A DNA stretch of 51,052 nucleotides, taken from positions 1 through 51,052 of IMG/VR virus record IMGVR_UViG_3300013093_000066. One strand, written 5' to 3'. This document shows positions 1,232-47,406 of the stretch, one piece after another (positions within the stretch are counted from its first letter, which is position 1; every line of letters starts with the position of its first letter). Position numbers and translations under genes: made by a program. Origin of the DNA: a virus. The notes beneath the pieces are model-generated. The model saw only the letters and a list, made by a program, of their open reading frames with translations. It did not search any database and was not told where the DNA came from.

Positions 1232-1239
1232 AAGTTTAC

Positions 1240-1316
1240 TGGCGCATAGCTCAGATGATTAGAGCACACGACTGATAATCGTGAGGTCGATGGTTTGAAT
1301 CCATCTGTGCCAACCA
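1240..1316 (+). tRNA. tRNA-Ile (GAT)
   Basis: Acceptor TGGCGCA/TGTGCCA, anticodon stem CACGA/TCGTG with loop CTGATAA (GAT), T-loop TTTGAAT and encoded ACCA. Confidence 0.9.
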
Positions 1317-1320
1317 ATAC

Positions 1321-1397
1321 GCGACGTTCTTCTAATGGAATAGGAATCCTCCCTTTCAAGGAGATCAATATCGGTTCGAGTCCGATACGTCGCACCA
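1321..1397 (+). tRNA. tRNA-Glu (TTC)
   Basis: Acceptor GCGACGT/ACGTCGC, anticodon stem CTCC/GGAG with loop CTTTCAA (TTC), T-loop TTCGAGT and encoded ACCA. Confidence 0.88.
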
Positions 1398-1398
1398 G

Positions 1399-1440
1399 TC
1401 CGGGCGTAGCGCAGTCTGATAGCGTACTTGATTTGGAGTT
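1399..1440 (+). pseudogene. 5' half of a tRNA-Pro (TGG) cut off at the anticodon loop
   Basis: The sequence from TCCGGGC through the D-arm to CTTGA-TTTGGAG matches the first half of a tRNA-Pro and looks like alphaproteobacterial tRNA-Pro. After the anticodon loop the sequence leaves the tRNA pattern and enters the leader of the HNH gene. A 3' half able to pair with TCCGGGC is not seen downstream; an intact, different tRNA-Pro lies just after the HNH gene instead. The simplest reading is a tRNA broken by insertion of the endonuclease gene. Confidence 0.7.
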
Positions 1441-1453
1441 AATCTCAAAATGC

Positions 1454-1481
1454 TTCTCTTTATAAATAATAAAAAGGAGAA
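1454..1481 (+). promoter_or_regulatory. Hairpin covering the HNH ribosome-binding site with a late promoter in it
   Basis: TTCTCTTT (1454-1461) can pair with AAAGGAGAA (1473-1481) with one bulged G, hiding the GGAG ribosome-binding site. TATAAATA (1461-1468) lies at the loop, so late transcripts would begin near 1474, lack the 5' arm and expose the site. This is the layout known for the T4 I-TevI gene. Confidence 0.6.
1461..1468 (+). promoter_or_regulatory. T4-type late promoter (TATAAATA) for the HNH gene
   Basis: Exact TATAAATA, 17 bp before the ATG, inside the hairpin described at 1454-1481. Confidence 0.65.
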
Positions 1482-1484
1482 AAT

Positions 1485-1913
1485 ATGAGACATTCTAAAA
1501 TTAAATGTGAAAAATGTGAAAGAGAATTCGGTAACAATAATTTCAGTAAACATGTAAAAGTTTGCGAAGGAATTAAAATATGTCCAGTTTGCAGTAATAA
1601 ACATACTAAAACTAGTGTAACATGCTCTTATTCTTGCTCAAATAAGTTTTTTAGATCAGGTGAAAATAATGGTAACTGGAAACAAGAAGCTTATCGTTCT
1701 ACATGTTTTCAATATCATAAAAAAGAATGTGTTGTTTGTAGCGAAAACAAAATAGTTACAGTTCATCACCTTAATGAAAATCACAGTGATAATAGACCAG
1801 AAAATTTAATTCCATTATGTCCAACTCACCATCAATATTTTCATTCAAAATATAGATCAGAAGTTGAACCTATAATTATTGATTATTTGAAAAAATGGAA
1901 TATCAGGGAATAG
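1485..1913 (+). CDS. HNH homing endonuclease with N-terminal zinc fingers
   Basis: This 142-residue protein starts at an ATG after AAGGAG. Its first half has several Cys pairs (CEKC, CPVC, CSYSC) suggesting zinc fingers. The second half is an HNH nuclease domain with HHLNENHSDNRPENL and LCPTHH. Free-standing HNH enzymes of this kind cut DNA site-specifically to copy their own genes. The gene sits between a broken tRNA-Pro half and an intact tRNA-Pro, and its last 10 bases, including the TAG stop, lie inside the latter. It is AT-rich compared with the tRNAs around it, consistent with recent arrival. The cleavage target is unknown but is probably a tRNA-Pro gene. Confidence 0.9.
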   Translation: MRHSKIKCEKCEREFGNNNFSKHVKVCEGIKICPVCSNKHTKTSVTCSYSCSNKFFRSGENNGNWKQEAYRSTCFQYHKKECVVCSENKIVTVHHLNENHSDNRPENLIPLCPTHHQYFHSKYRSEVEPIIIDYLKKWNIRE

Positions 1914-1980
1914 CTCAATCTGGTAGAGCGTTGCGTTTGGGACGCAAAGGTTGCAGGTTCGATTCCTGTTTCCCTGACCA
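1904..1980 (+). tRNA. tRNA-Pro (TGG)
   Basis: Acceptor CAGGGAA/TTCCCTG, anticodon stem TTGCG/CGCAA with loop TTTGGGA (TGG), T-loop TTCGATT and encoded ACCA. Its first ten bases are also the end of the HNH reading frame. The body differs clearly from the broken tRNA-Pro at 1399, so it is not simply that gene's missing part. Confidence 0.93.
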
Positions 1981-1986
1981 ATATCC

Positions 1987-2062
1987 GCTCCCATCATCTA
2001 GCGGCCTAGGATACCCGCCTCTCACGCGGATCACACCGGTTTGAATCACACCACTCGGACCA
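1987..2062 (+). pseudogene. Decayed copy of tRNA-Glu (CTC)
   Basis: The first ~65 bases match the intact tRNA-Glu(CTC) at 2186 almost exactly, including the anticodon loop CTCTCAC. The T-arm and acceptor 3' strand are replaced: after GGTTTGAATC the sequence no longer pairs with either the T-stem or GCTCCCA. It still ends in ACCA. It is probably non-functional, or a chimera with the 3' end of another tRNA. Confidence 0.75.
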
Positions 2063-2185
2063 TAAATATAATGGCGGGCTCACCTGTGGAAAATGTACCC
2101 GCCACCGCCGGAGCGAAATGGTGAGATGGGCTGCTGCCGCGGGGTTTGTTAGTTTTCCTGACACACAAAAAACTAACACTAATTT
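2063..2185 (+). other. Structured spacer between the two tRNA-Glu copies
   Basis: It holds a GGCGGG/CCCGCC hairpin near 2072-2103 and a TTAGTTTT/AAAACTAA hairpin near 2149-2178. There is no ORF and no promoter-like sequence. It is more GC-rich in its first half than the region around it. Confidence 0.4.
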
Positions 2186-2261
2186 GCTCCCATCATCTAG
2201 CGGCCTAGGATACCCGCCTCTCACGTGGATCACACCGGTTCGAATCCGGTTGGGAGCACCA
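2186..2261 (+). tRNA. tRNA-Glu (CTC)
   Basis: Acceptor GCTCCCA/TGGGAGC, anticodon loop CTCTCAC (CTC), T-arm CCGG-TTCGAAT-CCGG and encoded ACCA. It is the intact member of a duplicated pair and complements tRNA-Glu(TTC). Confidence 0.92.
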
Positions 2262-2270
2262 AAATATTTG

Positions 2271-2299
2271 TGTACATATATGCACGACTGATATATAGT
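2271..2299 (+). promoter_or_regulatory. Early-type promoter before tRNA-Asn
   Basis: TGTACA (2271-2276), a 17-bp spacer and TATAGT (2294-2299), inside the phage's TTGTGTACAT box. The predicted start near 2306 would yield tRNA-Asn and the genes after it. Confidence 0.7.
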
Positions 2300-2316
2300 A
2301 AGAATATAGAGTTTAT

Positions 2317-2391
2317 TTCGTGGTGGCGCAGCGGTAGCGCAGTTGACTGTTAATCAATTGGTCGTAGGTTCGAATCCTACCCACGGAGCCA
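2317..2391 (+). tRNA. tRNA-Asn (GTT)
   Basis: Acceptor TTCGTGG/CCACGGA, anticodon stem TTGA/TCAA with loop CTGTTAA (GTT), T-loop TTCGAAT, discriminator G and encoded CCA. Confidence 0.92.
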
Positions 2392-2399
2392 TTTAGGTT

Positions 2400-2505
2400 G
2401 ATCGCTTAATAGATCCGCGAGAGTTATGGTCAGCTCTCAGTATCGGGAGGGTCTGGATGGAAACACTAGATCGTAATCTGCTGGCGTTCTAGCCAGCCTC
2501 CCGCC
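2400..2505 (+). ncRNA. Structured RNA after tRNA-Asn
   Basis: A GAGAG/CTCTC hairpin (2419-2438) is followed by a 7-bp stem CGGGAGG/CCTCCCG (2444-2450 with 2497-2503) that encloses AGAT/ATCT and a 6-bp GCTGGC/GCCAGC hairpin. No ORF. The boundary with the leader of the 2525 gene is not clear. Its identity is unknown. Confidence 0.45.
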
Positions 2506-2524
2506 CAGTTTCTAGGAGTTAGTT

Positions 2525-2824
2525 ATGAAGTATATGGTGGATATCGATAATACAATCTGCGTCACTGAAGATCGTGACTACGAGAACGCTGTTCCTATCC
2601 AACATCGCATAGACTATCTAAATCAACTCTTTGATGAAGGTAATGAGATTCATTACTGGACTGCTAGAGGTACTACTAGCGGCAAAGATTGGAATCACTT
2701 GACCATGTATCAGCTGAACGCTTGGGGTTGTAAGTTCACAACCGCAAGAGTTGGTAAACCAGACTATGATGTTTGGATTGACGACAAGGCAGTTAACGAC
2801 AGAGACTTCTTTCCACCCTTTTAG
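2525..2824 (+). CDS. Small HAD-like phosphatase
   Basis: This 99-residue protein begins with a HAD motif I (DIDNTI, with two Asp), has a Thr-rich motif II region (YWTARGTTSG) and ends with a motif IV-like WIDDKA. The fold suits a minimal Mg-dependent phosphatase of the kind found near sugar or nucleotide genes in phages. The ATG is preceded by TAGGAG. The final base of the stop codon is also the first base of tRNA-Thr. The substrate is unknown; capsule- or nucleotide-type phosphates are possible. It lies downstream of a structured leader. Confidence 0.75.
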   Translation: MKYMVDIDNTICVTEDRDYENAVPIQHRIDYLNQLFDEGNEIHYWTARGTTSGKDWNHLTMYQLNAWGCKFTTARVGKPDYDVWIDDKAVNDRDFFPPF

Positions 2825-2898
2825 CCCAAATAGCACAGCGGTAGTGCAATCGCCTTGTAAGCGATAGGTCGGGAGTTCAATCCTCTCTTTGGGCACCA
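2824..2898 (+). tRNA. tRNA-Thr (TGT)
   Basis: Acceptor GCCCAAA/TTTGGGC, anticodon stem TCGC/GCGA with loop CTTGTAA (TGT), T-loop TTCAATC and encoded ACCA. It shares its first base with the preceding stop codon. Confidence 0.92.
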
Positions 2899-2904
2899 TT
2901 TTGA

Positions 2905-2995
2905 TCTAGGTACCATTAGCCCACCCAGTGTCGACCATGTTTGGTGGAGCTCGTCGCAATCCTAGACTATATAAGAGCCAACACGTGAGGCTCAG
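2905..2995 (+). ncRNA. Structured spacer after tRNA-Thr
   Basis: TCTAGG (2905-2910) pairs with CCTAGA (2961-2966), enclosing a CCACC/GGTGG stem. A GAGCC/GGCTC hairpin lies just before the ribosome-binding site of the next gene. No ORF. Confidence 0.35.
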
Positions 2996-3010
2996 CTTTA
3001 TGGAGACTAT

Positions 3011-3193: not shown

Positions 3194-3833
3194 TATCATA
3201 GGTAATTATATTATTACAAAAAAATTAGAGTTAGACACGACAAAGATTCTTCAGAGCGTTAATATTCTTAATCATTATATTATGAATGATATGCCTATCT
3301 TTGTTAATGAACAGATCGATCTCTATAAAGATAAAAACATAGTTGATAATCCTAATCAACTATTATCGACACGCATGTATGATCATTATAATCTTTTCTT
3401 ATATAGTCTTGAGGGGTTTTACGAACTCTTTAAAGAAATTAGTGATATGTTTAATCAAATTAAACCAGATCGATCAGAGTATTATTATATACAAGCATGG
3501 TTTAATATATACAATAAAGGCGAGTATATTGATTGGCATAAACACTGGCCATCAGAATTTAAGGTATGGCACGGAGTTTATTGTGTAAATACAAATGGAT
3601 CTAAGACAACTTACAGATTATCATCTGGTGCAGAGTTAGATGTTCCATCGGAAGATAATCTTTTGTTTATGGGTCCAAGTGATAATGATGAACATAGAAC
3701 ATGGCCATGGACTGGTGACGAGCCAAGAGTAACTATTGCATTTGATATAGTTCCTAGATGGGCTATTCGTAATTTTAATGAGTCAAATTATTTCTTACCA
3801 AGAACACCTAATCATTGGATACCAATAATATGA
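3180..3833 (+). CDS. Putative 2OG-Fe(II) oxygenase
   Basis: This 217-residue protein has a C-terminal half typical of the double-stranded beta-helix oxygenases that use iron and 2-oxoglutarate: IDWHKHW as the likely first metal site, DEHRTWPW with the distal His, and EPRVTIAFDIV with an Arg that could hold 2-oxoglutarate. Such enzymes hydroxylate proteins, amino acids or small molecules. The first metal site reads HKH rather than the usual HxD/E, which leaves some doubt. A second start lies at 3186. The stop overlaps the next start as ATGA, coupling it to two halogenase homologues. A joint oxidative tailoring role is inferred from this context only. Confidence 0.6.
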   Translation: MRMYNIIGNYIITKKLELDTTKILQSVNILNHYIMNDMPIFVNEQIDLYKDKNIVDNPNQLLSTRMYDHYNLFLYSLEGFYELFKEISDMFNQIKPDRSEYYYIQAWFNIYNKGEYIDWHKHWPSEFKVWHGVYCVNTNGSKTTYRLSSGAELDVPSEDNLLFMGPSDNDEHRTWPWTGDEPRVTIAFDIVPRWAIRNFNESNYFLPRTPNHWIPII

Positions 3834-5011
3834 CAAAAATTGCAATTTTAGGTAAAGGAACTGCTGGAGCTTTATCAGTATCTCACTTCAGAAAATATAT
3901 GCCACATGCAGAGATAGATTGGTACTATGATCCTGATAAGCCTACCCAAGCTGTAGGAGAGGGTTCTGTAGTTCAATTCCCATCTAATCTTTTTAATAGT
4001 ATGAATTTTACATACTCCGATCTAAAAAAGATCGATGGTACTATGAAGACTGGAATTGAGAAACATAATTGGGGTAAAAAGTATCAAGTGTTTGATGACA
4101 CCTTTACACCTCCATTTATTGCATATCATTTTAATGCCTTAAAATTACAGAGTTATATCTTTGATTTTTATAAAGATAGCGTCAACCAAATTGAAAAGAA
4201 TGTAACTAATAAAGACATCGATGCAGACTATATCATTGATTGTTCTGGTAAACCTAACCTAGATACAGATACTTCATTTGAAAGATCTAAGTATATACCT
4301 GTAAACTCTGTGCATGTTACTCAATGTTATTGGGATAAACCAGATTTTCAGCACACTAAAGCTATAGCCATGAAGTATGGATGGGTGTTTGCTATACCAC
4401 TATTAAACAGATGTTCTATCGGTTACCTATATAATAGGGACATTAATACTCTTGAAGATATTAAAGAAGATGTACAATCTATATTCAAAGATTTAAATCT
4501 AACACCTAGTACTGATCATAATACGTTTGACTTCTCTAACTATTATAGAAAACAAAACTATATAGGAAATGTTGCATACAACGGGAACGCATCTTTCTTT
4601 CTTGAGCCTTTACAGGCACAGTCTATTGGAATGATGGACATGACAGTTAGATACGCGTATGACATTATAAACAGAAATGGTGATACAGATAAATTTAATA
4701 AGATGTATGAGTTTGACGTAGCAGCATCAGAGAACGTTATAATGATGCATTACTTTGCAGGCTCACGCTTTAATACTCCATTCTGGGACTTTGCTGAAGA
4801 GAGAGGTGCTAGATGTATGGAGAGAGCAGTTAAAGACCCTAAGTTTGTACAAGCATTTAAAGATGTATCAAAGTTTGATAGTCTTATAGATGTTACAGAC
4901 AATAAGTCTAATCTCGGTGGATATATATTTTGGGGACCTTTATTCTTTTATCAAAATGTTAAAGGCCTTGGTATAGAAGATAAGTTTCAAGTATTAATAG
5001 ACAAATCATGA
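3830..5011 (+). CDS. Flavin-dependent tryptophan-halogenase-like protein 1
   Basis: This 393-residue protein has the FAD-binding GxGxxG motif (GKGTAGA, residues 8-14), a Lys at 73 in the position of the catalytic Lys of PrnA, and GWVFAIP (184-190), a variant of the family's WxWxIP motif. It is much shorter than the ~510-540 residues of bacterial tryptophan halogenases. At the PLEST-G site, where PrnA has its key Glu and chloride-binding residues, this copy has PLQAQSIG (260-267), so Glu is replaced by Gln. Loss or change of halide chemistry is likely. It starts by ATGA overlap and overlaps copy 2 by 4 bases. Phage homologues of this family are known from cyanophages; substrates are unknown. 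Confidence 0.85.
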   Translation: MTKIAILGKGTAGALSVSHFRKYMPHAEIDWYYDPDKPTQAVGEGSVVQFPSNLFNSMNFTYSDLKKIDGTMKTGIEKHNWGKKYQVFDDTFTPPFIAYHFNALKLQSYIFDFYKDSVNQIEKNVTNKDIDADYIIDCSGKPNLDTDTSFERSKYIPVNSVHVTQCYWDKPDFQHTKAIAMKYGWVFAIPLLNRCSIGYLYNRDINTLEDIKEDVQSIFKDLNLTPSTDHNTFDFSNYYRKQNYIGNVAYNGNASFFLEPLQAQSIGMMDMTVRYAYDIINRNGDTDKFNKMYEFDVAASENVIMMHYFAGSRFNTPFWDFAEERGARCMERAVKDPKFVQAFKDVSKFDSLIDVTDNKSNLGGYIFWGPLFFYQNVKGLGIEDKFQVLIDKS

Positions 5012-6177
5012 AGAAGATAGCTATCATAGGTAAGGGTACTGCTGGAGCACAAGCAGCTGCACATTTTAATAGATGGATGCCTGAGTGCGAATTAGAATGG
5101 CACTTTGACTCTAGCATTCCTACACAAGCTGTTGGTGAAGGATCAGTACTAACAATACCTCATAACTTGTTTGAGTCATTAAACTTTTCTCATGAAGACT
5201 TAAAACATATAGATGGTACTTTTAAGACTGGAATTATGAAGTATAATTGGGGTGATAGTAACACTACATTTATGCACGACTTCTCTCCACCAAGTATAGG
5301 TTATCACTTTAACGCCCGTGCTCTACAAGAATATATCCTTAACTATCTTAAGGATAAAATAAAGATATTTGATCACAATATCTCTATTGATGATGTAGAT
5401 GCCGATTATATAATGGATTGTTCAGGTAAACCTAAATCTTATGAAGATTATAATCTGACAAGATACATACCTGTAAATTCTGTTCATGTAGTTCAATGCT
5501 GGTGGGATAATGTTACATTCCAACATACTAAAGCTATTGCTACAAAATATGGATGGGTGTTTGCAATACCTTTATTAAACAGATGTTCTATTGGTTACCT
5601 ATATAATAAAGATATCAATACTCTAGATGAAGTTAAAGAAGATGTGCAGGATATAATTAATCAGCTAGGCTTAACATCTAGCAATGATACTATTACATTC
5701 TCTTTTAAGAACTACTCTAGAAAGCAAAACTTTAAAGCTAATATAGCTTACAATGGAAATGCTTCTTTCTTTGTAGAACCATTAGAAGCTAATTCTCTAT
5801 GTATGATGGATGCTGTACAAAGATCTGCATTTGATATATGGAGTAACGGAGCATCAATCGATCAACAAAACAAGATATATTCTGATAAAGTAAGTCGTAT
5901 AGAAAATATTGTTATGATGCACTACTTTGCAGGATCTAAGTTTAAGACACCATTTTGGGAATTTGCCCAAGAGCGTGGAGTTAAATGTATGGAGAATGCA
6001 GACAGTGATTTTAGATATATGGCTATGCACTGCAATGATCTAGAAGGAGTCGGACAATACGTTAGTCCAAGACTTAATTTTGATATAAAGTCTTATTTCT
6101 TCTGGGGTTATCCAAGCTTCTATCAAAATGTAAATGGACTTGGTGTTAAAGATAAATTAAAAGAGATATGGATATAA
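5008..6177 (+). CDS. Flavin-dependent tryptophan-halogenase-like protein 2
   Basis: This 389-residue protein is a clear tandem paralogue of the preceding gene, with the same GKGTAGA, Lys73 and GWVFAIP (182-188). Here the active-site loop reads VEPLEANSL, keeping Glu at 260, but the Thr-Gly pair that binds chloride in PrnA is still missing. The pair could act as a heterodimer or on two substrates (inference). It overlaps the upstream copy by 4 bases and ends 44 bp before tRNA-Cys. Codon use is AT-rich like its partner. Confidence 0.85.
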   Translation: MKKIAIIGKGTAGAQAAAHFNRWMPECELEWHFDSSIPTQAVGEGSVLTIPHNLFESLNFSHEDLKHIDGTFKTGIMKYNWGDSNTTFMHDFSPPSIGYHFNARALQEYILNYLKDKIKIFDHNISIDDVDADYIMDCSGKPKSYEDYNLTRYIPVNSVHVVQCWWDNVTFQHTKAIATKYGWVFAIPLLNRCSIGYLYNKDINTLDEVKEDVQDIINQLGLTSSNDTITFSFKNYSRKQNFKANIAYNGNASFFVEPLEANSLCMMDAVQRSAFDIWSNGASIDQQNKIYSDKVSRIENIVMMHYFAGSKFKTPFWEFAQERGVKCMENADSDFRYMAMHCNDLEGVGQYVSPRLNFDIKSYFFWGYPSFYQNVNGLGVKDKLKEIWI

Positions 6178-7103: not shown

Positions 7104-7760
7104 TTGGCAGGAAAAATAGCTCTATTCATAGATCACCCAAGGTGCTCCATTCATGGTGTGAATGGCATCATGAATATCCTGCAACCATATTACAAATTTA
7201 AGATCTTTACCAAGCACGAGATACTCTACGACGATTGGTTCGATGACGTAGATATGATAGCTGTGCCTGGAGGTATTGGCGATGCTGATACCTTTAATCG
7301 TATCATGAGACCACATATACCTGTTATAAGGGACTTTGTACTAAATCAAGGCGGTAAGTATCTTGGTATATGCATGGGTGCTTATTGGGCAGGAAAAGAA
7401 TATCTAAACATATTAGAGAACAGAGACTGTGTGCAGTATCTAGCAAGACCCGGCACAGATACCAGAAGACCACACGCTAAGAACTTAGAAGTCACGTGGA
7501 ACGGTCAAAAAGAGAAGATGTTCTGGTATGATGGTTGTAGTATTATCGGGGATGGTAAATTCGATACTGTAGCAACTTATACAAATGGTGATATTATGGC
7601 AGGTTTCCAAAGGAACATCGGTCTAATAGGTTCTCACCCAGAAGCTGAGAGACACTGGTACACAGAATATAGCTGGATGAATAAAGTCTGGGATGAGAAT
7701 GTTGCCAAACACAATCACAAATTATTGTTAGAGTTTGTAGACGAACTAATGAGAAGATAA
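7104..7760 (+). CDS. Class I glutamine-amidotransferase-like protein
   Basis: This 218-residue protein has a GATase1-like fold: IALFID at the start, VPGGIGD near 54, a nucleophile elbow YLGICMGAYWAG (about 88-99) with the Cys, and a late GSHPEAERHW segment supplying a possible catalytic His and Glu. It resembles the BPL_N/biotin-ligase N-terminal type of the superfamily. No synthetase partner is adjacent, so it may hydrolyse another amide or act on peptides. The start is TTG, 8 bases after AAGGGG; no in-frame ATG fits better. Its stop directly abuts tRNA-Phe. Confidence 0.72.
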   Translation: MAGKIALFIDHPRCSIHGVNGIMNILQPYYKFKIFTKHEILYDDWFDDVDMIAVPGGIGDADTFNRIMRPHIPVIRDFVLNQGGKYLGICMGAYWAGKEYLNILENRDCVQYLARPGTDTRRPHAKNLEVTWNGQKEKMFWYDGCSIIGDGKFDTVATYTNGDIMAGFQRNIGLIGSHPEAERHWYTEYSWMNKVWDENVAKHNHKLLLEFVDELMRR

Positions 7761-7836
7761 GCTTGGGTAGCTCAGCTGGTAGAGCACCTGCCTGAAGAGC
7801 AGGGTGTCGGCGGTTCGATCCCGTCTCCAAGCACCA
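7761..7836 (+). tRNA. tRNA-Phe (GAA)
   Basis: Acceptor GCTTGGG/TCCAAGC, anticodon stem CTGC/GCAG with loop CTGAAGA (GAA), T-loop TTCGATC and encoded ACCA. It starts at the base after the preceding stop codon. Confidence 0.93.
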
Positions 7837-7850
7837 TATAGGAGAACACT

Positions 7851-8051
7851 ATGACCTTTGAAGATCTACTAGCCTGGGATGGAATCACTGTAGCAGAGAG
7901 TATGGTGTTGACCGGCTTAGCAAAGACTAAGTCAGAAGCTCGCCGTATGATTGATCAAGGATCAGTTAAAGTAGACGATATAAAAGTAACTAATCCTAAA
8001 GCTGTGATATTATTTAGTCCAGATAGAATAAAACACTGTGTAGTTCACTAA
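7851..8051 (+). CDS. Stand-alone S4 RNA-binding domain protein
   Basis: This 66-residue protein is essentially one S4 domain. TGLAKTKSEARRMIDQGSV and the DDIKVTNP turn closely follow the C-terminal tRNA-binding domain of bacterial tyrosyl-tRNA synthetase. S4 domains bind structured RNA such as tRNA and rRNA. Here it has no catalytic part and sits between tRNA-Phe and tRNA-Arg, so tRNA binding is a reasonable guess. The ATG follows AGGAG. The stop abuts tRNA-Arg. Confidence 0.78.
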   Translation: MTFEDLLAWDGITVAESMVLTGLAKTKSEARRMIDQGSVKVDDIKVTNPKAVILFSPDRIKHCVVH

Positions 8052-8128
8052 GGATCCGTAGCTCAACTGAATAGAGCGCCGCGCTACGAACGCGGAGGTT
8101 AGGGGTTTGAGTCCTCTCGGGTCCTCCA
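8052..8128 (+). tRNA. tRNA-Arg (ACG)
   Basis: Acceptor GGATCCG/CGGGTCC, anticodon stem CGCG/CGCG with loop CTACGAA (ACG, requiring A-to-I editing by the host TadA), T-loop TTTGAGT and encoded CCA. It is the only Arg tRNA seen in the window. Confidence 0.9.
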
Positions 8129-8145
8129 TAATAAAGGAGTATACC

Positions 8146-8616
8146 ATGAAGAAAATTAATATAGAAGAGGTAAAAGAGTTCATCGCAGCTCAGTCTCCAG
8201 AGACCAAGATCTATATTGGTGGTGACTCCGAGAGATTTAATATGAAGGGCTTATGGTACGCTGACTATACCCTTGCTATTGTTATACATTATAATGGTAA
8301 TAGAGGTTGTAAGATCTTTGGTGAAGTAACTCGCGAGAGAGACTTTGACCAGCAAAAAGATAAGCCTCGCATGCGTCTTATGAACGAGGTATATAAGATT
8401 GCAGATCTTTATCTAAAATTATCAGAAGTACTGGAGGATAGACATGTCGAAGTACATCTTGATATTAATCCAGATGAGCACCACGGTAGTTCTTGCGTTA
8501 TCAATGAAGCAACAGGATATATTCGTGGAATGTGTAATGTCGTGCCTTTGGTTAAGCCAAACGCTTTTGCTGCATCTTATGCTGCAGATAGATTAAAAGA
8601 AGTTTTAGCAGCTTAA
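8146..8616 (+). CDS. RNase H-like protein (YkuK/DUF458-like)
   Basis: This 156-residue protein starts at an ATG after AAGGAG. It opens its core with IYIGGDSERF, the motif of the DUF458/YkuK predicted RNase H-like family, and keeps further acidic positions (GEVTRERDFD, HLDINPDEHH), which could form a metal site. The YkuK family's substrate is not established. Its position in a tRNA cluster fits an RNA-processing role, but this is inference. Confidence 0.72.
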   Translation: MKKINIEEVKEFIAAQSPETKIYIGGDSERFNMKGLWYADYTLAIVIHYNGNRGCKIFGEVTRERDFDQQKDKPRMRLMNEVYKIADLYLKLSEVLEDRHVEVHLDINPDEHHGSSCVINEATGYIRGMCNVVPLVKPNAFAASYAADRLKEVLAA

Positions 8617-8645
8617 CATATATAGAAAGAAGCCACATATACAAG

Positions 8646-8756
8646 ATGTTTAAAAGACTAGATAGAGTATTTAATTTTATCATCAAGATACTTTGGTTTA
8701 TACTCTTGTGCAAGTGGCTTGTAGGTGACCTAGATATTAGGACACTTATTCATTAA
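8646..8756 (+). CDS. Possible 36-residue membrane peptide
   Basis: A short frame with a basic start (MFKRLDRVF) and a hydrophobic segment about 10-27. The ribosome-binding site is weak (AGAAAG well upstream). It fills the gap between the 8146 gene and tRNA-Gly. It could be a real small membrane protein or chance. Confidence 0.35.
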   Translation: MFKRLDRVFNFIIKILWFILLCKWLVGDLDIRTLIH

Positions 8757-10058: not shown

Positions 10059-10066
10059 TATAAATA
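10059..10066 (+). promoter_or_regulatory. T4-type late promoter (TATAAATA)
   Basis: Exact TATAAATA directly after tRNA-Thr, 22 bp before the ATG of the exported protein at 10089. Confidence 0.7.
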
Positions 10067-10088
10067 ATAGTTTAACAGGGAGGTAAGC

Positions 10089-10394
10089 ATGAGATACCTA
10101 ATACCCCTACTATTGATATCAACATCGGCACTAGCACAACAACAACCATGTGGAACAGCACAAACAGTACATGATTTTATTTCAAACAATTATGGTGAAA
10201 AACCATTCATTGAGATGAAAGATGAATATAACAGACAATTTATTATGTACGTAAATCCCGATAACGGTAGCTGGACAGTAGTACAGCTTACTGAGCAGGG
10301 TACAATGTGTGGTATATCTTCTGGTAAAGGAATGATTCCTGCAACTAAAAGATTTGAGACTACACCGCCAAAGAAAAAAGAAGATCCTAGTTAA
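10089..10394 (+). CDS. Small exported protein
   Basis: This 101-residue protein has a clear signal peptide (MRYLIPLLLISTSALA, cleavage likely before QQQPC). Two Cys (near 21 and 75) could form a disulphide. The C-terminus is a Pro/Lys tail (TPPKKKEDPS). The ATG follows GGGAGG and a late promoter, so it is made late and exported to the periplasm. A role in lysis or the envelope is possible. The stop codon abuts tRNA-Met. Confidence 0.7.
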   Translation: MRYLIPLLLISTSALAQQQPCGTAQTVHDFISNNYGEKPFIEMKDEYNRQFIMYVNPDNGSWTVVQLTEQGTMCGISSGKGMIPATKRFETTPPKKKEDPS

Positions 10395-16792: not shown

Positions 16793-16845
16793 GAAAGACT
16801 CTGCTGTATAAATAGTTCGTAAACCCTATTGCAGCAGAGTCTTTC
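16793..16845 (+). promoter_or_regulatory. 14-bp leader hairpin with a late promoter in its loop, before a GIY-YIG gene
   Basis: The arms 16793-16806 and 16832-16845 are perfect complements. The 25-base loop begins with TATAAATA (16807-16814), so a late transcript would start near 16820, lose the 5' arm and leave the start region (ATG at 16848) open. Read-through RNA from upstream would keep it closed. This matches the known control of T4 I-TevI. Confidence 0.8.
16807..16814 (+). promoter_or_regulatory. T4-type late promoter (TATAAATA) for the GIY-YIG gene
   Basis: Exact TATAAATA at the start of the hairpin loop, 33 bp before the ATG. Confidence 0.75.
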
Positions 16846-16847
16846 TT

Positions 16848-17468
16848 ATGAAATATCTCATATATAAAATCACCAATTTAGTCAATAGAAAATACTATAT
16901 TGGAAAACATCAGACTAAAGACTTAAATGATGGATATATGGGTTCTGGTAAACTCTTAAAAATAGCTATCAAGAAGTATGGGATTGAGAACTTCAAAAAA
17001 GAAATACTTCATATCTTTGATAATGAAGAAGATATGAATAATGCAGAAAAAGAACTAGTCGTCATTTCTGAAGAAACGTATAATCTTTGTGAAGGAGGTC
17101 GAGGAGGATTTAGCTATATAAATCGTACCAGAAACCATCATGAACATAATCAAAAAATAGCTGACAAGCGTGACTATTCAAAAACAGATACTTCTTACGT
17201 CACAACAGAATGGATAGAAGAGAAAAGAGTTTCAGCAAAACAACATTGGAAAAACGGTACATATACTTTCATTCCAGATACAACTGGTATGAAACATACT
17301 GATGATGTAAAAAAGAGAATGAGTGAAGCACATTCTGGAAGTAAAAATTCTCAATATGGAACGTGTTGGGTTACAGACGGTTCAAATTCCAAAAAGATAA
17401 AGAACGAAGAATTAAAAGAATATCTAGACAATGGGTTTGTTAAAGGCAGACGTATTAAGCGACCGTAG
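16848..17468 (+). CDS. GIY-YIG homing endonuclease (Seg-like)
   Basis: This 206-residue protein starts with a GIY-YIG domain (LIYKITN and YYIGKHQ, followed by GYMGSGKLL and the catalytic-Glu region AEKELV near 66-71). A C-terminal DNA-binding part has HTDDVKKRMSEAHSG, a NUMOD3-like repeat, and CWVTDG. Such enzymes spread by cutting a related phage genome near the insertion site. No good ribosome-binding site lies outside the leader hairpin. The gene ends 10 bases inside tRNA-Leu(GAG), so a neighbouring tRNA may be its target. Confidence 0.9.
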   Translation: MKYLIYKITNLVNRKYYIGKHQTKDLNDGYMGSGKLLKIAIKKYGIENFKKEILHIFDNEEDMNNAEKELVVISEETYNLCEGGRGGFSYINRTRNHHEHNQKIADKRDYSKTDTSYVTTEWIEEKRVSAKQHWKNGTYTFIPDTTGMKHTDDVKKRMSEAHSGSKNSQYGTCWVTDGSNSKKIKNEELKEYLDNGFVKGRRIKRP

Positions 17469-19841: not shown

Positions 19842-20179
19842 TTTGTATTTCCCTTCATCTGCGACACAGTATTCTTTAAGATTATCGTAGCTGGCTTCTC
19901 AAGCAGCTTTGTTTCTGCTGAGTATAAATAATCTTCGAGACTCTTCATCTTTGTATCGATCTCTTGATTTTGCGCAGTTAGATCTTTCTCAATATCTTTT
20001 TGTTTGGAATTTAACTCGTCCATCTTGGCCTGGAAAGCCTGCTGGTCTTTCATGACCTGCTCAAGCTGCTTCTGGTTATATGCCATTAAAGCTTGCTTTT
20101 CTACTTGGGTTTTCCAATAAGCAAATCCGCTCGATAGTATGACAAATATGAATATATAAAACTGTAGTCTTGCAACCAT
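19838..20179 (-). CDS. Probable inner-membrane spanin (Rz-like)
   Basis: This 113-residue minus-strand protein has one N-terminal membrane helix (about 5-22, LQFYIFIFVILSSGFAYW) and then a long Gln/Lys/Glu-rich coiled coil (about 27-95) in the periplasm, the layout of Rz-type inner-membrane spanins. It is driven by a TATAAATA on the minus strand 22 bp upstream, so it is made late. The partner lipoprotein overlaps its end. Confidence 0.75.
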   Translation of the reverse strand: MVARLQFYIFIFVILSSGFAYWKTQVEKQALMAYNQKQLEQVMKDQQAFQAKMDELNSKQKDIEKDLTAQNQEIDTKMKSLEDYLYSAETKLLEKPATIILKNTVSQMKGNTK

Positions 20180-20200
20180 AATGAACCTCCCATTTTTTTG

Positions 20201-20208
20201 TATTTATA
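20201..20208 (-). promoter_or_regulatory. T4-type late promoter for the spanin pair
   Basis: TATTTATA on the plus strand reads TATAAATA on the minus strand, 22 bp before the start of the probable i-spanin. Confidence 0.75.
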
Positions 20209-46063: not shown

Positions 46064-46102
46064 TCACTCCCGATGCATATATAGTAAGTGCATCGGGAGT
46101 GA
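46064..46102 (+). promoter_or_regulatory. 14-bp hairpin hiding the ribosome-binding site of the second GIY-YIG gene
   Basis: Arms 46064-46077 and 46089-46102 are perfect complements, with loop TATATAGTAAG. The 3' arm contains GGGAG, the ribosome-binding site of the gene at 46107, so the RNA hides it. The loop element resembles late or -10 promoter boxes but is not an exact TATAAATA, so promoter use is uncertain. Confidence 0.75.
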
Positions 46103-46106
46103 TATT

Positions 46107-46526
46107 ATGAGTTATGATAATCCTTGGACGTTTAATAGTAATATAATAGACTCAGAAGTACTAGAGAACTATCTAGGGTTTGTCTATATAATAACTAACC
46201 TCACAAATAATAAGAAGTACATAGGTAAGAAGCTTCTAAAGAAGTCAAAGACACGCCAAGTTAAGGGTAAGAAGAAGCGCTCACTAGTCGAGTCTGACTG
46301 GAAAGACTACTATGGATCTAATAAAGATCTATTAGTCGAGTTAAACAGTGAAGGCATGGCTCCTAGTAACTTTAAGCGTGAGATACTCAGGCTGTGTAAG
46401 ACCAAAGGCGAGTGCACTTATTACGAGGCTAAAGCACAGTTTGATGCAGACGTGCTAAATAAAGATGACTACTACAATGGTTGGATCATAGCCAAGGTTA
46501 GTAGAAGTCATTTACCAAAGAATTAG
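46107..46526 (+). CDS. GIY-YIG nuclease-domain protein
   Basis: This 139-residue protein has a GIY-YIG start (GFVYIITNLTNNKKYIGKKLL, motifs FVYIIT and KYIGKK), a WKDYYGSNKDL segment and a Glu-bearing helix (ECTYYEAKAQF). It is shorter than homing types and lacks a clear second DNA-binding domain, so it may be a free-standing nuclease or a reduced homing enzyme. It starts behind a hairpin that hides its ribosome-binding site, and its stop codon shares its last base with tRNA-Ser. Confidence 0.82.
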   Translation: MSYDNPWTFNSNIIDSEVLENYLGFVYIITNLTNNKKYIGKKLLKKSKTRQVKGKKKRSLVESDWKDYYGSNKDLLVELNSEGMAPSNFKREILRLCKTKGECTYYEAKAQFDADVLNKDDYYNGWIIAKVSRSHLPKN

Positions 46527-46616: not shown

Positions 46617-46624
46617 TATAAATA
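46617..46624 (+). promoter_or_regulatory. T4-type late promoter (TATAAATA)
   Basis: Exact match two bases after tRNA-Ser, 24 bp before the next ATG. An AGATG/CATCT hairpin lies between it and the start. Confidence 0.72.
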
Positions 46625-46647
46625 GATGATCTAAAAGGGGTGCATCT

Positions 46648-47406
46648 ATGAAGTCAATATTAAAAACTATGAAGAAAGTGGTTCGCGAGGAGCGTGGTCT
46701 TCCACTCAATGAGACTAAGATTAGTCTTGAGTACCATGACGAGCTGAATCCTAAATTATGGAATGGATGGGACTTAAAGCCTGAAGTTAGACAGAAACTA
46801 CTAGACTTCGCGAAGACATGGGCTGAGTTTGCCAAAATACAACCAAGTATGATTAAAGATATCATTATGATAGGTGGTAATACAAATTACAACTATACAC
46901 CTAAATCAGATATAGATGTGCATCTGCTTATAGATAGAAATAAGATTAATCCTGACAGAGAGTTTGTCGACGAGTACTTACAAGCCAAGAAAGTACTGTG
47001 GACAATGACCCATAATGTCACGATACTAGGGTATCCTATCGAGCCATATGCTCAAGATATAAATCAAGCTCATGCATCTGGTCAAGGCGTATTCAGTCTT
47101 AAGAGAAACATGTGGATTCAAAAGCCTAATCATGAGAAGCTAGACTTTAAGTCTGATAAGAATCTCAAGAAGAAGGTTATGTTCTATGCACACATGATCG
47201 ACGACATGATTAAGAACAAGATGGATGCCGGTGTGTTTAATGACCTAAGAAAGAAGATGGCAGACATGAGATCTGCCGGTATTGCCAAGGGTGGTGAGTT
47301 TAGCTTCGAGAACCTAGTCTTCAAGGAGCTACGTAACCGTGGATATCTTGACAAGATGAATAACTATGAAAAGACTATCAAGGACCAGCAACTTAGCCTA
47401 AAATAA
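46648..47406 (+). CDS. Nucleotidyltransferase-like protein (pol-beta superfamily)
   Basis: This 252-residue protein has the pol-beta-type signature IMIGGNTNYNYTPKSDIDVHLLI (near 74-96), with G-G-N in place of the usual G-S and the metal pair D-x-D. Such enzymes add nucleotides to RNA, proteins or drugs. A charged C-terminal domain follows. I recall uncharacterised homologues in marine T4-like phages. A late promoter drives it. Its target could be RNA, as the nearest gene is a tRNA, but there is no direct evidence. Confidence 0.72.
   Translation: MKSILKTMKKVVREERGLPLNETKISLEYHDELNPKLWNGWDLKPEVRQKLLDFAKTWAEFAKIQPSMIKDIIMIGGNTNYNYTPKSDIDVHLLIDRNKINPDREFVDEYLQAKKVLWTMTHNVTILGYPIEPYAQDINQAHASGQGVFSLKRNMWIQKPNHEKLDFKSDKNLKKKVMFYAHMIDDMIKNKMDAGVFNDLRKKMADMRSAGIAKGGEFSFENLVFKELRNRGYLDKMNNYEKTIKDQQLSLK

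What the first reader, a model, noticed from the sequence alone, without database searches (positions are those of the whole stretch)
1454..1485. HNH gene: late promoter inside a hairpin that covers the ribosome-binding site
The stem TTCTCTTT/AAAGGAGAA covers GGAG, and TATAAATA lies at its loop. RNA from upstream would be untranslated while late RNA starting in the loop is free. This is the control scheme known for T4 I-TevI.
Basis: partly seen in the sequence, partly recalled or inferred. Interest (0 to 1): 0.7.

Follow-up and report, generated by a model that had tools for sequence, protein, structure and literature searches.

The report
Late-only HNH gene inside tRNA-Pro
In a T4-like phage, a selfish DNA-cutting gene has landed in the anticodon loop of a proline tRNA gene, brought an intact replacement proline tRNA with it, and carries an RNA hairpin with an internal late promoter that should keep it silent until late infection, a switch known from T4 and here found repeatedly in genes of this kind.

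Summary
TATAAATA (1461-1468) sits at the loop of a hairpin whose right arm covers the Shine-Dalgarno AAGGAG of an HNH gene (1485-1913). Computed cost of freeing the SD is about 7.5 kcal/mol in RNA from upstream and 0.75 in RNA starting at the expected late start. This extra cost ranks 2nd of 68 window genes, behind a GIY-YIG gene. The 8-bp stem alone is not unusual for its composition; with its outer helix it is. HNH homologues in three other phages have the same layout with different arms, and GIY-YIG genes of tRNA clusters have far stronger versions (own arms median -21, swapped -6 kcal/mol). The scheme is known: I-TevI, II, III, segB, Aeh1 mobE (PMC2988022). Going further: the HNH gene is inserted in a tRNA-Pro(UGG) gene just behind the anticodon. 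A sibling contig has the uninterrupted gene (98% and 95% identical flanks). The ~600-bp insert holds hairpin, promoter, HNH gene and an intact, different tRNA-Pro overlapping the HNH stop codon. Relatives repeat the pattern. It resembles a natural 'home-and-rescue' element. Nuclease activity, RNA 5' ends and timing are untested.

The parts
1399..1440 (+). 5' half of a disrupted tRNA-Pro(TGG) gene, broken just behind the anticodon (TGG = 1434-1436)
   Evidence: Match to phage tRNA-Pro genes ends at 1436; identical to intact tRNA-Pro of sibling L144 7686-7762 up to 1440; not called as tRNA
1441..2037 (+). inserted segment (control region + HNH gene + new tRNA-Pro + 5' part of a tRNA-Glu), absent from sibling L144
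   Evidence: Window 1233-1442 = L144 7520-7728 (98.1%) and window 2038-2998 = L144 7738-8700 (95.3%)
1443..1447 (+). outer left arm UCUCA, pairs with UGAGA 1486-1490 over the start codon
   Evidence: MFE fold; outer helix needed for significance
1454..1461 (+). inner left arm UUCUCUUU (anti-SD)
1461..1468 (+). TATAAATA, T4-type late promoter box
   Evidence: exact match; about one helical turn upstream of the start in T4 (PMC2988020)
1473..1475 (+). expected late transcription start (inferred, not mapped)
   Evidence: distance rule of T4 late promoters
1474..1481 (+). inner right arm AAGGAGAA containing the Shine-Dalgarno
1485..1913 (+). HNH endonuclease ORF, 142 aa
   Evidence: Pfam HNH_2 above its cut-off; PHROG HNH families
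1904..1980 (+). intact tRNA-Pro(TGG) carried by the insert; its first bases supply the HNH stop codon
   Evidence: ARAGORN; Rfam tRNA 70.1 bits
1986..2037 (+). 5' part of a tRNA-Glu(CTC) at the right end of the insert
   Evidence: 1987-2047 matches L144 tRNA-Glu, 93%
2038..2062 (+). 3' remnant of the disrupted tRNA-Pro (T-loop GGTTTGAATC to CGGACCA)
   Evidence: alignment to L144
16793..16845 (+). second case: 14-bp perfect hairpin arms 16793-16806 / 16832-16845 with TATAAATA 16807-16814 at the loop start, for GIY-YIG gene 16848-17468
46065..46101 (+). third case: 13-bp perfect hairpin covering GGGAG of GIY-YIG (SegE-type) gene 46107-46526; loop TATATAGTAAG has only a degenerate box

Best explanation
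The feature is the expression switch of a mobile HNH homing-endonuclease cassette. RNA read through from upstream (the tRNA operon) contains both arms, folds, and hides the SD and AUG. When phage late transcription starts, polymerase initiates at TATAAATA inside the hairpin; the RNA begins at about 1474, lacks the left arm, and is translated from a very short leader. The cassette sits in a tRNA-Pro(UGG) gene split behind its anticodon and carries an intact, divergent tRNA-Pro directly behind the HNH ORF, which probably replaces the tRNA that the insertion destroyed. Shown: sequence, fold energetics, recurrence, empty site in a sibling. Inferred: late start, translational block, endonuclease cutting of tRNA-Pro, rescue.
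For: Fold and accessibility. Exact late box, over-represented in the window; the box before window gene 6611 is kept in sibling L144. Same layout with other arms in HNH homologues: L003 AATACTCC/GGAGTATT, XbC2 AATACTC/GAGTGTT, BF TTGATAAATATTCC/GGGAGATTTATCAA. Arm-swap test in 34 GIY-YIG loci. Endonuclease versus other late genes, 16/19 vs 1/21, p = 3e-7. Empty site. HNH family lies next to tRNA-Pro: 23 of 56 adjacent tRNAs vs 12 of 227 others, p = 1e-10. Half tRNA-Pro + HNH + full tRNA-Pro also in L094, L101, L109; L094 also keeps the matching 3' half.
Against: No expression or cleavage data. The inner 8-bp stem alone is not unusual for its base composition (49/400), and in the HNH swap test 6 of 14 foreign SD regions pair with its left arm as well as its own does. 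Only a minority of HNH relatives show the layout; many belong to other phages without TATAAATA. The genome is a 51-kb fragment, so the late sigma factor gp55 and the early promoter of the tRNA operon were not identified.
Confidence: 0.8

Rival explanations
1. The pyrimidine stretch pairs with the SD by chance; the gene simply has a late promoter close to its start and the hairpin does nothing.
For: Inner stem alone 49/400 in shuffles; left arm also pairs with foreign SDs.
Against: Full structure 2-5/400 and 0/600 against native 20-mers; 2nd of 68 genes; the layout recurs with other arms in homologues and strongly in neighbouring endonuclease genes.
Confidence: 0.15
2. The structure acts in RNA processing (tRNA trimming, RNase E or RNase III site) or as a terminator rather than on translation; the promoter inside it is incidental.
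For: It lies between tRNA genes; T4 segB and Aeh1 mobE transcripts are RNase E processed (PMC2988022).
Against: The arms track the SD and AUG rather than a tRNA end; no U-run follows; most related hairpins end just before the start codon.
Confidence: 0.08
3. The HNH gene lies in a self-splicing group I intron of tRNA-Pro and the hairpin is part of the intron.
For: Break at the anticodon, the classic tRNA intron site; I-TevI-like control.
Against: No group I intron in Rfam at E<=1 over 1300-2300; what follows is a whole different tRNA-Pro, not the 3' exon, and about 9 bases of the target are lost at the junction.
Confidence: 0.02

Closest known systems
T4 I-TevI (td intron), with I-TevII and I-TevIII
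   Same: Late promoter placed so that late RNA lacks the 5' strand of an RBS-sequestering hairpin (PMC2988022, PMC3014915)
   Different: Those are intron-encoded; this gene is free-standing within a broken tRNA gene, with no intron
T4 SegB and Aeh1 MobE
   Same: Free-standing endonuclease genes with promoter/RBS-hairpin arrangement; SegB lies in the T4 tRNA cluster (PMC2988022); T6 SegB cuts within tRNA genes (PMC13096335)
   Different: SegB is GIY-YIG; MobE is HNH but in nrd genes. Neither is described, in what I could read, as splitting a tRNA and carrying a replacement of the same tRNA
T4 lysozyme gene e and genes soc, 49
   Same: Early RNA hides the start in a hairpin; for gene e, late promoters lie immediately upstream of the RBS so that late RNA lacks the 5' strand (PMC3014915)
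   Different: Phage genes, not mobile endonucleases
Genomic islands that restore the tRNA they integrate into
   Same: Insertion into a tRNA gene with restoration of the tRNA (general knowledge)
   Different: Islands use integrases and restore the 3' end; here an HNH gene arrives with a whole different tRNA

Membership tests
Endonuclease genes under late-promoter-in-RBS-hairpin control (I-TevI/SegB/MobE type) | Hairpin in upstream RNA covers SD/AUG | tested here: met
   7.5-10.5 kcal/mol to open SD or SD+AUG in RNAs starting 1300-1420
Endonuclease genes under late-promoter-in-RBS-hairpin control (I-TevI/SegB/MobE type) | Late promoter positioned so that late RNA lacks the left arm | tested here: met
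   Exact TATAAATA 1461-1468; opening cost 0.75 from 1473-1475; start position itself inferred
Endonuclease genes under late-promoter-in-RBS-hairpin control (I-TevI/SegB/MobE type) | Upstream transcription runs through the gene early | not testable with these tools
   Gene is co-oriented within a tRNA array; no RNA data
Endonuclease genes under late-promoter-in-RBS-hairpin control (I-TevI/SegB/MobE type) | Translation only late; arm mutations change it | not testable with these tools
   Needs experiment
HNH homing endonuclease | HNH domain | tested here: met
   HNH_2 23.7 bits vs cut-off 21; PHROG HNH
HNH homing endonuclease | Occupied and empty alleles at one site in related genomes | tested here: met
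   Window vs L144; no HNH relative found in L144, L005 or L006 contigs (same query matches G000)
HNH homing endonuclease | Cuts the empty allele and is copied into it | not testable with these tools
   Needs biochemistry and phage crosses
Group I intron ORF | Group I intron RNA around the ORF | tested here: not met
   No Rfam hit at E<=1

The most novel reading that the evidence does not exclude
A natural 'home-and-rescue' element: an HNH nuclease that cuts tRNA-Pro(UGG) genes in the anticodon arm and travels with a divergent, presumably cut-resistant tRNA-Pro that restores the function it destroys, kept translationally silent on the early tRNA transcript by an RBS hairpin with an internal late promoter.
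Probability: 0.55. Interest if true: 0.75.

Novelty: new variant of a known kind. Interest (0 to 1): 0.52.

Why it matters
The switch is known, but here the arms have been replaced many times while pairing persists across dozens of uncultured phages, which makes it a general trait of tRNA-cluster endonucleases rather than a T4 curiosity. The second layer, a selfish nuclease that brings its own replacement for the tRNA it breaks, would be a natural counterpart of engineered rescue gene drives and would explain why these genes sit on tRNA-Pro. Intact and interrupted alleles are both in hand, so it is directly testable.

Tried and rejected
Group I intron: no Rfam support and wrong 3' side. Protection of tRNA maturation as the sole reason for the hairpin: in the GIY-YIG family, overlap of the ORF end with a downstream tRNA does not go with a strong hairpin (e.g. 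L014, L022, L048, L055, L063 overlap but lack one), so this is at most part of the reason. Arm-swap in the HNH family gave only a weak overall contrast (own -6.6, swapped -5.1 kcal/mol), because many relatives are not T4-like and lack the layout; the clear cases are L003, XbC2 and BF. A first regex for half tRNAs missed known ones, so halves were read by eye and by alignment. The primary papers on SegB and the MobE hairpin are not in the library; the two 2010 reviews were used instead. The literature searches turned up no report of an HNH gene with a replacement tRNA, but the library is partial and only titles, abstracts and a few papers were read.

Full report
WHAT THE WINDOW IS. The window is an IMG/VR virus record of 51,052 bases. 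It encodes T4-type replication proteins; gp43 is about 50% identical to cyanophage gp43. It has a dense tRNA array, with 29 tRNA genes in the window. TATAAATA, the T4 late box, occurs 14 times against 4.1 expected, several times just upstream of SD-led genes.

THE OBSERVATION. Arms TTCTCTTT (1454-1461) and AAGGAGAA (1474-1481) pair over eight positions, with one G-U. TATAAATA (1461-1468) starts at the tip of the left arm. The right arm contains the SD of ORF 1485-1913, an HNH protein (HNH_2 in Pfam; PHROG HNH families). The best fold adds an outer helix, 1443-1447 with 1486-1490 and 1432-1439 with 1492-1499, that covers the AUG as well; z = -3.4.

IS IT MORE THAN CHANCE. Freeing the SD costs 7.5 kcal/mol in RNAs starting at 1300-1420, 3.0 when only the inner hairpin is present, and 0.75 in RNAs starting at 1473-1475, where a T4-type late start is expected (T4 late boxes lie about one helical turn upstream of the start, PMC2988020). 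Shuffling 1441-1460 reaches the real value in 5/400 (SD) or 2/400 (SD+AUG); native 20-mers in 0/600; shuffling only the inner arm in 49/400. Among 68 window genes with ATG and SD, the HNH gene has the second largest extra cost in upstream RNA (7.1; mean 1.3). The largest (14.8) belongs to a GIY-YIG gene, 46107-46526, behind a perfect 13-bp hairpin.

RELATED SEQUENCES: HNH. The HNH homologue in L003 has TTTATAAATACTCC..GGAGTATT. Xanthomonas phage XbC2 has AAATACTC..GGAGTGTTT, and Serratia phage BF has TTGATAAATATTCC..GGGAGATTTATCAA. In each, a promoter-like TAAATA box lies in the left arm and the right arm covers the SD, with arm sequences unlike those of the window. Many other relatives are from phages without TATAAATA and lack the layout, so the swap test over the whole HNH set is weak.

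RELATED SEQUENCES: GIY-YIG. The window's GIY-YIG gene 16848-17468 has 14-bp perfect arms (16793-16806 / 16832-16845) with TATAAATA at the start of the loop. Of 60 relatives in IMG/VR, most of the distinct ones have a long hairpin with TATAAATA or a close variant at the same place, the arms differing completely between loci. Own arms pair with a median of -21.4 kcal/mol, swapped arms -6.2, over 34 loci. The gap from the preceding tRNA to the start codon is 57-65 nt in many loci although the tRNA differs. Window, L005 and L006 share the element up to the tRNA 3' end while the preceding tRNA bodies differ, so hairpin and promoter belong to the mobile unit. Over all TATAAATA-linked genes in the fetched loci and window, after reclassifying by PHROG/Pfam hits and sequence, 16 of 19 endonuclease genes and 1 of 21 others have an extra cost of at least 5 kcal/mol (Fisher p = 3e-7). 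The loci are not fully independent, so this p is optimistic.

WHERE THE HNH GENE SITS. Bases 1399-1436 match phage tRNA-Pro genes and the match ends at the last anticodon base. Contig L144 (164 kb) has the uninterrupted gene: window 1233-1442 aligns to L144 7520-7728 at 98.1%, window 2038-2998 to 7738-8700 at 95.3%, and L144 has an intact tRNA-Pro(TGG) at 7686-7762. The left junction is after 1440; the right one lies in the T-loop sequence GGTTTGAATC (2038-2047), shared by the tRNA-Pro and the tRNA-Glu fragment of the insert. The insert of about 600 bp holds the whole control region, the HNH gene, an intact tRNA-Pro(TGG) (1904-1980, Rfam 70.1 bits) and the 5' part of a tRNA-Glu. The contigs of L005 and L006 also have tRNA-Glu - tRNA-Pro - tRNA-Glu without the HNH gene. 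The same half-tRNA-Pro + HNH + full tRNA-Pro order occurs in L094, L101 and L109; L094 also keeps a 3' half whose acceptor strand matches the 5' half (CGGGATG / CATCCCG). In ten loci the HNH stop codon lies within an intact tRNA-Pro near its 5' end. Adjacent tRNAs are Pro in 23 of 56 cases against 12 of 227 elsewhere (p = 1e-10).

HOW IT MOST LIKELY WORKS. Early, the tRNA operon transcript contains both arms; the HNH start is hidden and the RNA serves as tRNA precursor. Late, polymerase starts inside the hairpin and the HNH protein is made. Because RNase P would cut the HNH mRNA in front of its stop codon to release tRNA-Pro, translation and tRNA maturation compete for the same RNA; silencing early RNA would spare the tRNA, as delayed I-TevI translation spares td splicing (PMC2988022). 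That last point is only a possible benefit: in the GIY-YIG family, hairpins do not go with tRNA overlap. The nuclease presumably cuts tRNA-Pro of co-infecting phages behind the anticodon, and the cassette's own divergent tRNA-Pro replaces the lost function. None of these steps is shown experimentally.

KNOWN OR NEW. The control scheme is known for I-TevI, I-TevII, I-TevIII, T4 segB and Aeh1 mobE, and RBS-hiding helices for T4 e, soc and 49 (PMC2988022, PMC3014915). SegB's link to tRNAs and cutting inside tRNA genes is known (PMC13096335). What I did not find described is an HNH gene splitting tRNA-Pro and carrying a replacement; the library is partial, so this is not proof of novelty.

VERDICT. 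Observation confirmed; interpretation supported as a mechanism, unproven by experiment; ordinary as a control scheme; more interesting as the switch of an apparent home-and-rescue cassette.

Noticed in passing
window 46065-46107: SegE-type GIY-YIG gene 46107-46526 has a perfect 13-bp hairpin covering GGGAG, with loop TATATAGTAAG instead of an intact late box; its end abuts tRNA-Ser 46526.
   Followed up: partly
window 16793-17468; L005-L064: GIY-YIG family inserted right behind the 3' ends of many different tRNA genes (57-65 nt from tRNA end to start in many loci); the preceding tRNA in the window reads CA where other window tRNAs read CCA.
   Followed up: partly
L144:9358-9391: In the sibling phage a glutamine-amidotransferase-like gene has a 10-bp hairpin CTCCTATAAA/TTTATAGGAG with the late box inside and the RBS in the right arm; the window's counterpart (7104) lacks it.
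   Followed up: partly
window 20179-20208 (- strand): Late box and partial RBS hairpin before a small protein with a hydrophobic N-terminus (113 aa, phrog_1009); the only non-endonuclease late gene tested with a strong extra SD-opening cost, perhaps a lysis gene like T4 e.
   Followed up: partly
L068:1974-1986, L070:1868-1881, L073:1847-1860, L079:1847-1860, L113:1740-1752: In other HNH relatives a TATAAATA-like box lies only about 4-6 nt before the ATG, which would give leaderless late mRNA.
   Followed up: no
window 10059-10089 and 46617-46648: Late-gene RBSs are complementary to the 3' end of the tRNA just upstream (ACAGG/CCTGT; AAGGGGTG/CACCCCTT), but the computed extra SD-opening cost is small.
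   Followed up: partly
L068:1930-1985: Long perfect hairpin CAAACGGTTCAGTTTG...CAAACTGAACCGTTTG directly upstream of the late box of an HNH relative.
   Followed up: no
window 3815-6177: Two tandem tryptophan-halogenase-like genes inside the tRNA array (judged from sequence only).
   Followed up: no
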